A stretch of DNA of 64,000 bases from assembly GCA_946481315.1 (NCBI GenBank), contig CAMLMH010000010.1, positions 50,535-114,534 of the forward strand, written 5' to 3'. The position numbers were made by a program, and so were the translations under genes. Below, in pieces: positions 45,648-48,449 of the stretch; the first letter of the stretch is position 1, and each line of letters starts with the position of its first letter. The notes below the pieces were generated by a model. The model ran no database searches, had not been told where the DNA came from, and saw nothing but the letters and a program-made list of their open reading frames with translations. Origin of the DNA: an uncultured Bacteriovorax sp. (GTDB lineage: Bacteria > Bdellovibrionota > Bacteriovoracia > Bacteriovoracales > Bacteriovoracaceae).

Positions 45648-45727
45648 CTGTAATCATTTGTTAGAATGCTTTCAGTTCTTCCTTGGTATGATCAGTGAGT
45701 TTTTTAACTCCACGCAAGGAAGAACTT

Positions 45728-46570
45728 ATGAAAAAAATCGCCCTCCTCACACTCGCAATTTTCTCCCTTCCTCTCCAGTCATTTGCTTTAACGAATTCAG
45801 TTATTGCCGAAGAAGATCAGTGGACACCTGTTGTTCAAATTAAATCCGAAGCTCCCGATGCTAATGGTGAGTCGATTCCCGGTTATTGTAATGCTACTTT
45901 CGTGTCCAATAATCTTTTAGTCACTGCCGCTCATTGTGTTTTGCTCGCTCATGTGTCTAATCAGACCCAACTTGATATTGAAATTGGCTATTATAAATAT
46001 GTGACCCGTCCGGATGGTCAGCGAGTGAGAATCGGTTACACGGCAAAATCGAAATTTTCAAAACACGTTAATATTCAATTGCCTCAATCCCTGCAGGATA
46101 AAGTTAATCGCAGCGGTGCTCGTACGAAGATAGGCCCGAATGAAGACTTTGCGATCGTCTGGTGGAATGAAGCAACTCCTGAAACTGCCGAGATGAAATT
46201 TTCTCCATTAGTGACTCCGGCCGAGCATGCTCAAATCACTCGATCACTGGCATCCCATCCGCTAAAAGTCTTATCAATAAACTTTTTCAGCACTTCTGAT
46301 TTAAATACAAAACGTCAGGCCGATTTAAATAACGTTCGTATGAATGGAAATTACGTACATTCTCAATCAGTAGCTCGTGTGGAAGAAGGTGACAGCGGTG
46401 CGCCTGTCTTTGCAAGAGTTAATAATCAAATGAAACTTTTTGCTGTTGTAAAAGGACGCGCAACGACCATTTTTTCTAACTGGGATGTCTATCCCACTAT
46501 TCATCCACACTTATGTGACATGAATAAAAGAATGCCAACGACAATGAAGCTTTCAGTTTGTGCAAATTAA
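45728..46570 (+). CDS. secreted trypsin-like serine protease (S1 family)
   Basis: A 280-residue exported protease. ATG 45728 follows AAGGAAG and opens a signal peptide (ending SFALT, about 20). The S1 triad is complete: His69 in TAAHC, Asp140 in NEDFAIV and Ser223 in EEGDSGAPVF. A short stretch before the first strand could be a propeptide. The substrate pocket is not read here. It ends at a hairpin that also terminates the minus-strand sRNA candidate. Such proteases are abundant in predatory bacteria; function in prey digestion is inferred. Confidence 0.9.
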   Translation: MKKIALLTLAIFSLPLQSFALTNSVIAEEDQWTPVVQIKSEAPDANGESIPGYCNATFVSNNLLVTAAHCVLLAHVSNQTQLDIEIGYYKYVTRPDGQRVRIGYTAKSKFSKHVNIQLPQSLQDKVNRSGARTKIGPNEDFAIVWWNEATPETAEMKFSPLVTPAEHAQITRSLASHPLKVLSINFFSTSDLNTKRQADLNNVRMNGNYVHSQSVARVEEGDSGAPVFARVNNQMKLFAVVKGRATTIFSNWDVYPTIHPHLCDMNKRMPTTMKLSVCAN

Positions 46571-46596: not shown

Positions 46597-46672
46597 AAAA
46601 AAGGGGCCCCCTGCAAAAGGCCCCATTTTTTCTGGCATCCTGCCATCTGTCGAGAACATCCTGTTCCCTACA
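46597..46672 (-). ncRNA. candidate CsrB/RsmZ-like small RNA
   Basis: About 76 bases on the minus strand, opposite no gene. Hairpin 1 (46668-46652) has stem GGGAAC/GUUCUC; hairpin 2 (46645-46633) has stem UGGC/GCCA. Both expose an AGGAU loop, each within the heptamer CAGGAUG (46663-46657; 46642-46636), which is the repeat consensus of E. coli CsrB. A GGGGCC/GGCCCC terminator with six T follows. This is what a short CsrA-sequestering RNA would look like. There is no expression evidence and the count of two sites is low, so it stays a candidate. Confidence 0.6.
46603..46631. terminator. bidirectional terminator of protease gene and candidate sRNA
   Basis: GGGGCC (46603-46608) pairs with GGCCCC (46619-46624). 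Six T follow on the plus strand (46626-46631, after one A) and six on the minus strand (46602-46597), so it can end both converging transcripts. Confidence 0.9.
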
Positions 46673-46678
46673 ATTACG

Positions 46679-46684
46679 ATTATA
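46679..46684 (-). promoter_or_regulatory. -10 box of the candidate sRNA
   Basis: A perfect TATAAT on the minus strand, seven bases before the expected start near 46672. The -35 position (ACAGCA at 17-base spacing) is poor, but the sequence upstream is A/T-rich, so the promoter is only partly supported. Confidence 0.5.
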
Positions 46685-46800
46685 ACCGTATTTAAAATTT
46701 TTGCTGTATTATTTTTTTATAGGTAAAGTTTTCCACCAATCCCAAGATGAGTTATCATTAAGAGTATCTCTTTCAAGGTAACATCAGCTATAGGATGAAT

Positions 46801-47169
46801 ATGTTTAAGCAGCTTTTTCTGTGCTTATTAGGGAAAAAAGGCCCGAAAAAAGACTTTAAAATTCAAACTTTTACCTTTTTTATACCTGCACCTCCTCCTC
46901 GGCAGTCCGGCTATAGGGAAAAACAATTTGATAAGCTATTTTATGAATTTATCAACAGGGGCTATGAGATCCTTCATTTTAGCACCCAGGCCTGCACTGG
47001 AGAAAATAACTCAGGAATGTGGCTTGTTTTTGTTTTACGGGCAACCAATGCAGATGCTGAGAAATTAATGCTGAATGATGAATTTATCACCGATTTAAAA
47101 TCCCGTGCATCAGTAAAAGAGGAAATTGAAGGACTTTATTATATTGATGATAAGGCACAGGAACTATGA
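46801..47169 (+). CDS. protein of unknown function
   Basis: About 122 residues from ATG 46801, chosen over ATG 46795 because TAGG then lies six bases upstream. It looks cytoplasmic or peripheral: a short hydrophobic start (MFKQLFLCLLG) is too weak for a clear signal peptide. The rest resembles a small alpha/beta domain with the DKLFYEFINRGYEILHF and MWLVFVLRAT strands. Its stop overlaps the next gene by four bases (ATGA). Confidence 0.7.
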   Translation: MFKQLFLCLLGKKGPKKDFKIQTFTFFIPAPPPRQSGYREKQFDKLFYEFINRGYEILHFSTQACTGENNSGMWLVFVLRATNADAEKLMLNDEFITDLKSRASVKEEIEGLYYIDDKAQEL

Positions 47170-48449
47170 CTTATTTTGTTTCCTTATTATTAGTACTCTT
47201 ACTTTCTTCCTGTTCTTTCTTTTCCCGCAAGATTGATAATCTTGCCGAATCAAAAGTCCCACAATCGTTAGCCTCACTTGGGGTCAAAAAAAATAATTTT
47301 TGCAGTGAAAAAACCAGACTCCAATATTTCGTGGAAGACGAATCTATTCTCAAATTTTATAAAAGTCTCGATTCTGTTTTTAAGCGCGAAAGACCTTTTA
47401 TTCAAAAGGCCATCATGATGGCGCTTATTGAGCTAAACCGCCGCCCAGATTTGCTAAGTCCTTCTTCCCGCCTGCAGGTCTTCATCAAATCCGGCGGAAA
47501 AAATCATTATTTTGATTTTCGTCCGGTCAATCTGGAAGATGACACAAAAAATCCATTCATGGCCGGTCTGCTTTATCTCAATGAAAAATTTACAACCAAG
47601 ACTCCCCTTACATCTCTGGCAGATGAACTAGATGCAAACATTCCTCAGCAATTACCCGTCAGCCTGGACCTCGAACAATTTTTGGCTTCCTCCCGCGGTA
47701 ATTTACAAAACAGTGAGATGATGACGGCCCGGTTTTTTAAAGGTGATGAAACAATCACTCGTTATGAAACTTTTCACCGCATGAGTTTTAAAAATATAGT
47801 TAATCGTTTCTCACCTGCTAAAAACGAAGAAAAAGATTATGTGTTTGATAAGAATCCACTGATTCAATATGCTAAAAAAAATGAAAGTGAGATATTTTGT
47901 AATATTAATCTTGATCAGGAAAATAATTTCAGCGATGAGATTTTAAGTTCTGAAAATGCACGCATTCACACAATGGGACTAATTGAAGATGATAATATTT
48001 TTCTCGCTGTCAGCTCTGGAGTAATCCAGCGTCCGCTTAAATTTGATAAAAAATTTCTTTTTATGAAAATGCGATCGTTGCCATTTGCAGCCCCTATCTG
48101 TGATATCCGGCATGAGGAAAAGAATATCATTCTTTTTTCAGCAAGAGGCAGAAGCCCTGGCCAGCATTTAAAGCACCTCATTTCTTATGAAGTTGATAAG
48201 GTGAAAACTCCATCAGAACTAAATGAACTGCTGCGTTTTTCCAGACATCTGTTTTTGAATGATCCTGATCGTATCCTTTACGAATCCAAAAGAGGAAGAA
48301 AGGCCCAGCTGGATTTCTTTCTATCAATGAATTTTCCCATTTATCATGTAGAAAGCCTTGGAGACGTCTTTGCAAGCATTTCTACTGGTGGTAAGCATAA
48401 TCTTATTATTGACGAAAGAGATACTACGAGGCTCTCGTGTCCGAAATAG
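47166..48449 (+). CDS. lipoprotein of unknown function
   Basis: A 427-residue protein with a perfect lipobox, LLSSC (Cys16), so it is anchored in a membrane after processing. The next residue after Cys is Ser, compatible with outer-membrane sorting by E. coli rules. The body is rich in charged residues with no recognised domain. It overlaps the small gene before it by four bases and the ferredoxin after it by 13, so the three are likely co-expressed. Confidence 0.75.
   Translation: MTYFVSLLLVLLLSSCSFFSRKIDNLAESKVPQSLASLGVKKNNFCSEKTRLQYFVEDESILKFYKSLDSVFKRERPFIQKAIMMALIELNRRPDLLSPSSRLQVFIKSGGKNHYFDFRPVNLEDDTKNPFMAGLLYLNEKFTTKTPLTSLADELDANIPQQLPVSLDLEQFLASSRGNLQNSEMMTARFFKGDETITRYETFHRMSFKNIVNRFSPAKNEEKDYVFDKNPLIQYAKKNESEIFCNINLDQENNFSDEILSSENARIHTMGLIEDDNIFLAVSSGVIQRPLKFDKKFLFMKMRSLPFAAPICDIRHEEKNIILFSARGRSPGQHLKHLISYEVDKVKTPSELNELLRFSRHLFLNDPDRILYESKRGRKAQLDFFLSMNFPIYHVESLGDVFASISTGGKHNLIIDERDTTRLSCPK

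What the first reader, a model, noticed from the sequence alone, without database searches (positions are those of the whole stretch)
46597..46684. Compact CsrB/RsmZ-like sRNA candidate with two CAGGAUG hairpin loops
On the minus strand, in a 225-base gap, a perfect TATAAT box is followed by two hairpins, each presenting AGGAU in the loop inside the exact CsrB repeat CAGGAUG, then a strong terminator, all in about 76 bases. Two identical protein-binding loops on different stems (GGGAAC/GUUCUC and UGGC/GCCA) are unlikely to arise by chance, and the different stem sequences suggest the loop is what is conserved. CsrA-sequestering RNAs are poorly known outside Gammaproteobacteria; this would be one of the smallest. 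CsrB/RsmZ pattern is established knowledge; the match here is seen; the function is inferred.
Basis: partly seen in the sequence, partly recalled or inferred. Interest (0 to 1): 0.78.

Follow-up and report, generated by a model that had tools for sequence, protein, structure and literature searches.

The report
Tiny CsrA-binding RNA in predatory bacteria
A roughly 76-base RNA gene, found in most genomes examined from one family of predatory-type bacteria, looks like a minimal decoy for the master regulator CsrA, in a lineage that also has the protein decoy FliW, two controls reported hardly ever to occur together.

Summary
On the minus strand at 46597-46684 lie a TATAAT box, two AGGAU-loop hairpins, each inside CAGGAUG, and a terminator. 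All nine closest genomes (Bacteriovorax/Bacteriovoracaceae MAGs) carry it. A covariance model finds it in 111 of 129 family genomes (115 read as clear after a second model). Hairpin 1 covaries strongly (0 of 500 shuffles reach it). Its loop keeps GGA in 111 of 111 parsed copies and samples the published CsrB repeat set CAGGA(U/A/C)G. The two GGAs lie 20-27 nt apart in 92 of 93 copies that have both, within the published range for one CsrA dimer. Hairpin 2 keeps GGA in 93 of 110; 15 of the 17 exceptions carry a second twin-GGA RNA, found in 28 of 129 genomes. A palindrome, GGAAAANNTTNCC, lies at a near-fixed distance upstream. csrA and fliW are each found in 119 of 129 genomes. No Rfam family matches. 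Best reading: a minimal CsrA-sequestering sRNA outside Gammaproteobacteria, coexisting with FliW. A review I read in passages says joint FliW-sRNA control of CsrA is undetermined in any species. Transcription and CsrA binding are inferred, not shown; the window's own genome was not held.

The parts
46722..46734 (-). conserved upstream palindrome GGAAAACTTTACC (family consensus GGAAAANNTTNCC), likely activator site centred about -56
   Evidence: at least 11 of 13 positions in 107 of 107 copies with enough upstream sequence; 49-51 nt before the -10 in 95 of 107; exact 14-mer TGGAAAACTTTACC once per genome, at the sRNA, in 9 of 9 (the reversed pattern occurs once in 1 of 9); coordinates
46679..46684 (-). 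-10 element TATAAT of the sRNA promoter
   Evidence: TATAAT or TATACT in the 8 aligned close copies
46597..46672 (-). sRNA gene (sRNA-A), about 76 nt; 5' end inferred about 7 nt after the -10
   Evidence: 5' end is inference
46652..46668 (-). hairpin 1, GGGAAC-AGGAU-GUUCUC, first GGA loop
46633..46645 (-). hairpin 2, UGGC-AGGAU-GCCA, second GGA loop
46597..46624 (-). intrinsic terminator, stem 46624-46603 plus T run
46795..47169 (+). divergent 124-aa gene of unknown function, persistent neighbour
   Evidence: homologue beside 94 of 111 sRNA loci (63 of 111 under the stricter one-ORF-per-place rule); no Pfam match
47166..48449 (+). 427-aa gene, second gene of the divergent pair
   Evidence: homologue beside 100 of 111 sRNA loci (98); used to find relatives; no Pfam match
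45695..46570 (+). convergent trypsin-like protease gene beyond the sRNA terminator, not a conserved partner
   Evidence: its cluster lies downstream in 9 of 111 loci

Best explanation
A free-standing small RNA of about 76 nt, made from its own activator-dependent promoter, that captures one CsrA dimer by presenting two GGA hairpin loops about 22 nt apart, and so relieves CsrA's control of its mRNA targets. It is a minimal CsrB/RsmZ-type sponge working beside the protein antagonist FliW. Shown here: conserved structure, GGA loops, promoter palindrome, terminator, neighbouring genes, and the presence of csrA and fliW in the family. Inferred: transcription, CsrA binding, sequestration, and the activator.
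For: Present in 9 of 9 genomes of the closest relatives. Found in 111 of 129 family genomes; 115 read as clear after model R2. Hairpin 1: 90.3% of inner pair cells paired against 35-44% when slid; 0 of 500 shuffles; 77 G-U against 3 A-C of 405 cells, fixing the strand. Hairpin 2 inner stem GGC/GCC 98, GAC/GUC 8, AGC/GCU 4 of 110, every one paired (the parse leans that way). Loop 1 with its closing pair reads CAGGAUG 67, CAGGAAG 19, UAGGAUG 18, UAGGAAG 4, CAUGGAUG 2, UAGGACG 1 of 111, against the CsrB repeat CAGGA(U/A/C)G given in PMC7652899. GGA-to-GGA spacing 20-27 nt in 92 of 93; PMC7652899 gives 10-63 nt for bridging, best above 18. csrA in 119 of 129, one copy in all but one of these; RNA-contact Arg44 in 28 of 28 CsrAs read. 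A second sRNA in 28 genomes has two GGA loops in 28 of 28 with spacing 18-26 nt. Nearest downstream ORF is same-strand in only 33 of 111 loci, so it is hardly a leader.
Against: No transcript or binding data. Only two sites per RNA, so it must be abundant to titrate CsrA. 17 of 110 parsed copies lack GGA in loop 2 and one lacks it in loop 1 (G060). 14 of 129 family genomes have no clear copy: with laxer filters 13 of them gave nothing below E 0.005 and G027 only doubtful matches; some are large (G059, 4.9 Mb). On the model-fitted alignment A3 the hairpin 2 helix is only 49.6% paired, which I attribute to variable loop length. Shuffles do not keep the relatedness of the sequences; the slid control does. 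csrA is near universal in the phylum (333 of 368), so co-occurrence itself says little.
Confidence: 0.8

Rival explanations
1. A base-pairing sRNA that uses CsrA only as a chaperone or stabiliser, its main job being antisense pairing with mRNAs.
For: In 7 of the 8 aligned close copies the spacer UUACUAGU is identical, and hairpin 2 is invariant in all 8; precedents McaS and GadY are base-pairing sRNAs reported to antagonise CsrA (PMC7652899 passage).
Against: Across the family the linkers vary in length and sequence (loop-to-loop spacing 15-22 nt in 109 of 110); by eye no long unpaired stretch stays conserved except A-rich runs.
Confidence: 0.1
2. A cis-acting leader, attenuator or terminator element of a neighbouring gene.
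For: The terminator stem is near symmetric and could end the convergent protease mRNA too (sequence).
Against: The nearest downstream ORF of 100 aa or more is opposite in 64, same strand in 33, absent or at an edge in 14 of 111 loci; own -10 and palindrome upstream; the G-U pattern fits only this strand.
Confidence: 0.04
3. A conserved sRNA whose GGA loops bind another protein or the ribosome, not CsrA.
For: GGA-rich loops resemble Shine-Dalgarno sequence; binding is not shown.
Against: The CsrB set CAGGA(U/A/C)G in loop 1, GGA kept while neighbouring loop bases vary, and a like two-site spacing in a second RNA.
Confidence: 0.06

Closest known systems
CsrB/CsrC and RsmX/Y/Z sRNAs of Gammaproteobacteria
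   Same: GGA-loop hairpins, repeat CAGGA(U/A/C)G, own promoter, terminator, expected CsrA titration
   Different: two sites instead of many; no Rfam match (CsrB 7.5 bits against a cut-off of 71); no UvrY/GacA-type box near it (consensus recalled); in a FliW lineage
McaS and GadY
   Same: sRNAs reported to bind and antagonise CsrA besides other roles (PMC7652899 passage)
   Different: those base-pair with mRNAs; here no conserved seed is seen
TwoAYGGAY (RF01731)
   Same: matches a CsrA-binding motif; proposed CsrA-binding RNA outside Gammaproteobacteria (PMC4333381 passages)
   Different: listed for human gut, gamma-Proteobacteria and Clostridiales (PMC2864571 passage); no Rfam hit to it here
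CsrA-FliW system of Bacillus, Campylobacter and Geobacter
   Same: csrA beside fliW in the loci read; CsrA carries Asn55, proposed for FliW binding (PMC13407953 passage; 28 of 28)
   Different: those are described as without known CsrA-antagonising sRNAs (passages)

Membership tests
CsrB/RsmB RNA family (RF00018) | covariance-model score at or above the gathering score | tested here: not met
   Searches (window; 9 related loci): no gathering hit; 7.5 bits against 71
CsrA-sequestering sRNAs (functional class) | GGA in hairpin loops, conserved while stems covary | tested here: met
   loop 1 111 of 111 with covariation; loop 2 only 93 of 110
CsrA-sequestering sRNAs (functional class) | two or more sites at a spacing one CsrA dimer can bridge | tested here: met
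   20-27 nt in 92 of 93 copies that have both GGAs; range from PMC7652899
CsrA-sequestering sRNAs (functional class) | CsrA with the RNA-binding arginine in genomes that carry the RNA | tested here: met
   in relatives only: csrA 119 of 129, Arg44 28 of 28 read; the window's own genome is not held
CsrA-sequestering sRNAs (functional class) | binds CsrA and relieves its targets | not testable with these tools
   needs gel shift and mutants
BarA-UvrY/GacS-GacA-controlled Csr sRNAs | TGTAAG-N6-CTTACA upstream (consensus recalled) | tested here: not met
   16 matches in the window with up to 3 mismatches, none between 45512 and 47595; another palindrome is conserved instead
TwoAYGGAY (RF01731) | covariance-model match | tested here: not met
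   no gathering hit; not among the weak matches

The most novel reading that the evidence does not exclude
Bacteriovoracaceae run a dual-input Csr system: FliW reports flagellar state, while one or two tiny sRNAs, each clamping a single CsrA dimer, report another signal through an unknown activator at GGAAAANNTTNCC (seen at sRNA-A). This would break the reported exclusion between FliW and Csr sRNAs and show CsrA-sponge RNAs arising independently of CsrB/RsmZ, perhaps twice within one family.
Probability: 0.6. Interest if true: 0.85.

Novelty: new variant of a known kind. Interest (0 to 1): 0.75.

Why it matters
Csr sRNAs were reported as identified only in Gammaproteobacteria (PMC4333381 passage), and BarA-UvrY, which drives them there, as strongly anti-correlated with fliW (PMC4682653 passages). 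[quoted passage not shown] Here 109 of 129 genomes of one family carry both fliW and a copy of this sRNA that I read as clear, so the question becomes directly testable. With two sites for one dimer, it would also be a very simple natural CsrA decoy.

Tried and rejected
Divergent promoter overlapping the palindrome: suggested by close relatives, but no conserved -10 on the divergent strand across 107 copies; dropped.

Terminator loop with GCAGG as a third CsrA site: the motif is found in 107 of the 110 parsed copies, but GCAGG-type loops also occur on terminators without twin-GGA hairpins (L141, L151). Those were picked up by the model itself, so whether the loop is a general habit is unsettled. 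Not used.

Members outside the family: 9 of 239 other genomes of the phylum had weak R2 matches (E 1.9e-5 to 7.9e-4). I read 8 of them (G149 not read). Seven lack the twin-GGA architecture (two, G184 and G141, show one GGA hairpin by eye); G204 has two CAGGATG hairpins at a start codon and no terminator. In the family, G027 is doubtful: its 2.8e-4 match was read and rejected, its 5.7e-4 match was not read. Of the other 13 genomes without a clear copy I read the best weak match of two (G083, G038), neither convincing.

Plasmid search: no match. Literature on CsrA or sRNAs in this group: nothing relevant in the listings; only the held open-access library was searched.

Dropped rows: 7 antisense shadow matches were excluded from alignment A3; L087 was not parsed for hairpin 2 though by eye it keeps GGA; 4 copies with little upstream sequence were left out of the palindrome count; L185 was left out of the sRNA-B counts.

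Full report
What is there. On the minus strand between a convergent trypsin-like protease gene (45695-46570, +) and a divergent 124-aa gene (46795-47169, +) lie a TATAAT box (46684-46679), hairpin 1 (46668-46652), hairpin 2 (46645-46633) and an intrinsic terminator (46624-46603, T run to 46597). Folding gives -31.9 kcal/mol, z -3.41. Two CAGGATG at this spacing occur once in the window and in none of 100 shuffles.

Relatives. No genome is held for the window. The 427-aa neighbour found nine loci, all Bacteriovorax or Bacteriovoracaceae MAGs. Seven of the nine loci reach the region and all seven carry the same RNA at the same place. The other two genomes (G002, G009) carry it on other contigs, beside the same 124-aa neighbour (L031 and L029). 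A model from 8 sequences (R1) found it in 111 of 129 genomes of that family. A model from 100 sequences (R2), over 368 genomes of the phylum, matched 125: 116 in the family (one, G027, doubtful) and 9 weak ones of 239 outside. I read 110 family copies plus the window and five more, so 115 family genomes are clear. Of the remaining 14, searched again with laxer filters, 13 gave nothing below E 0.005 and G027 gave 2.8e-4 and 5.7e-4. E-values of these models are rough.

Covariation and loops. In 81 distinct hairpin 1 stretches, 90.3% of the six inner pair cells are paired, against 35-44% when one arm is slid and 75.7% in shuffles; none of 500 shuffles reach the observed paired fraction, number of pair types or double-change score. 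Shuffles ignore relatedness; the slid control does not. A separate count on A3, which is fitted to the model, gives a covariation score of 0.302 against 0.168 shuffled (0 of 500), with the main hairpin 1 helix at 94.8%, the terminator at 71.1% and the hairpin 2 helix at only 49.6%. I read the last as misregistration from loops of 5 or 6 nt, because parsing by motif gives all three inner pairs of hairpin 2 in 106 of 106 distinct copies, with three stem sequences. That parse demanded a C before and a G after the loop and limited letters beyond, so it leans that way. G-U pairs (77 of 405 cells) far outnumber A-C (3), so the structured strand is the minus strand of the window.

GGA is in loop 1 of 111 of 111 copies and in loop 2 of 93 of 110 parsed copies. 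Loop 1 with its closing pair reads CAGGAUG 67, CAGGAAG 19, UAGGAUG 18, UAGGAAG 4, CAUGGAUG 2, UAGGACG 1. The CsrB repeat is given as CAGGA(U/A/C)G in PMC7652899 (passage). The two GGAs lie 20-27 nt apart in 92 of 93 copies that have both; one CsrA dimer bridges sites 10-63 nt apart, best above 18 (PMC7652899 passage). Of the five later copies, G060 lacks GGA in loop 1 and the other four show GGA in both loops by eye.

Promoter. A palindrome GGAAAANNTTNCC scores at least 11 of 13 in 107 of 107 copies with enough upstream sequence and sits 49-51 nt before the -10 in 95 of 107 (the best match in the scanned stretch was taken, so some of the fit is selected). In the five later copies it is clear in some and blurred in others by eye. 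The exact 14-mer TGGAAAACTTTACC occurs once per genome in 9 of 9 close relatives, each time at this RNA; the reversed control pattern occurs once in one of them. The scan found no -35, and no UvrY/GacA-type box lies nearby (consensus recalled). I infer an activator of unknown identity. No evidence was found that it also serves the divergent gene.

Not a leader. The nearest downstream ORF of at least 100 aa is on the opposite strand in 64, the same strand in 33 and absent or at an edge in 14 of 111 loci. Upstream synteny is strong: the 124-aa gene's homologue in 94 and the 427-aa gene's in 100 of 111 loci (63 and 98 under the stricter ORF choice).

CsrA and FliW. csrA is found in 119 of 129 family genomes, 117 over the cut-off, and in 333 of 368 of the phylum. 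fliW is found in 119 of 129, the missing ten being the same ten that lack csrA, as expected if the two sit together and a contig is missing. In the two csrA loci that I read in full (L014, L010) fliW follows csrA, after a gene that by eye is a flagellar hook-associated one (gene names by eye); in G088 and G089 csrA and fliW lie on different contigs. In 28 CsrA proteins read, Leu4, Arg44 and Asn55 are invariant. Asn55 is proposed for FliW binding (PMC13407953 passage). Thus 109 of 129 genomes have both a clear sRNA and fliW (115 clear copies less 6 without a fliW match: G003, G042, G077, G084, G094, G113).

A second RNA. Weak matches of R1 and R2 led to a different RNA, sRNA-B (alignment and model R3): 28 of 129 genomes clearly, a 29th match (L185) rejected by eye. 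Its hairpin sequences and surroundings differ from those of sRNA-A, so I take it as separate, though a remote common origin is not excluded. It has GGA in both loops in 28 of 28 and GGA spacing 18-26 nt. In the 9 copies first aligned its two hairpins hardly vary; stem changes appear in the wider set by eye. Single-sequence folding shows both GGA hairpins in one of three copies folded and mainly the second hairpin in the other two. 15 of the 17 genomes whose sRNA-A lost the second GGA have sRNA-B. Most of these are near-identical relatives, so this is not 15 independent events.

What is known. Passages of PMC7652899, PMC4894983, PMC4682653, PMC13407953 and PMC4333381 say that Csr sRNAs are described in Gammaproteobacteria, that BarA-UvrY and fliW are strongly anti-correlated, and that joint FliW-sRNA control is undetermined. 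PMC4333381 proposed CsrA-binding RNAs in Clostridia, Bacillales and Lactobacillales, so prediction outside Gammaproteobacteria is not new in itself. My searches for such an RNA in this group or beside FliW listed no paper that reports one; of most listed papers I saw only the listing, and only the held open-access library was searched. The 2024 Campylobacter sRNA paper (PMC11187230 passages) treats CsrA-FliW as distinct from sRNA titration.

Verdict. A real, conserved, structured RNA; most likely a minimal CsrA sponge. It looks built to work like CsrB/RsmZ without belonging to those Rfam families. Transcription, binding and physiological role remain to be shown.

Noticed in passing
L157-L184 (28 family genomes): A second twin-GGA RNA (sRNA-B): hairpin ATCANGGANGAT, a second hairpin around GANGGA, terminator; no Rfam match in the three loci tested (L147, L157, L180).
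   Followed up: partly
L137 around 1001-1090, L138 around 1001-1074: Directly after the stop codon of what by eye is the flagellar hook gene flgE, two GGA hairpins plus a terminator (L137) or one (L138): a possible CsrA sponge in an mRNA 3' end.
   Followed up: partly
L187 476-534 (outside the family): Two CAGGATG hairpins at the start codon of a 436-aa protein with, by eye, a signal-like N terminus: a candidate CsrA-repressed mRNA.
   Followed up: partly
window 46795-48449: A two-gene unit (124 aa and 427 aa) without Pfam matches stays next to the sRNA in most of the family; its role is unknown.
   Followed up: partly
window 46603-46624, L141, L151: The sRNA terminator loop holds GCAGG in nearly every copy, and GCAGG-type loops also sit on a few other terminators of the phylum; reason unknown.
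   Followed up: no
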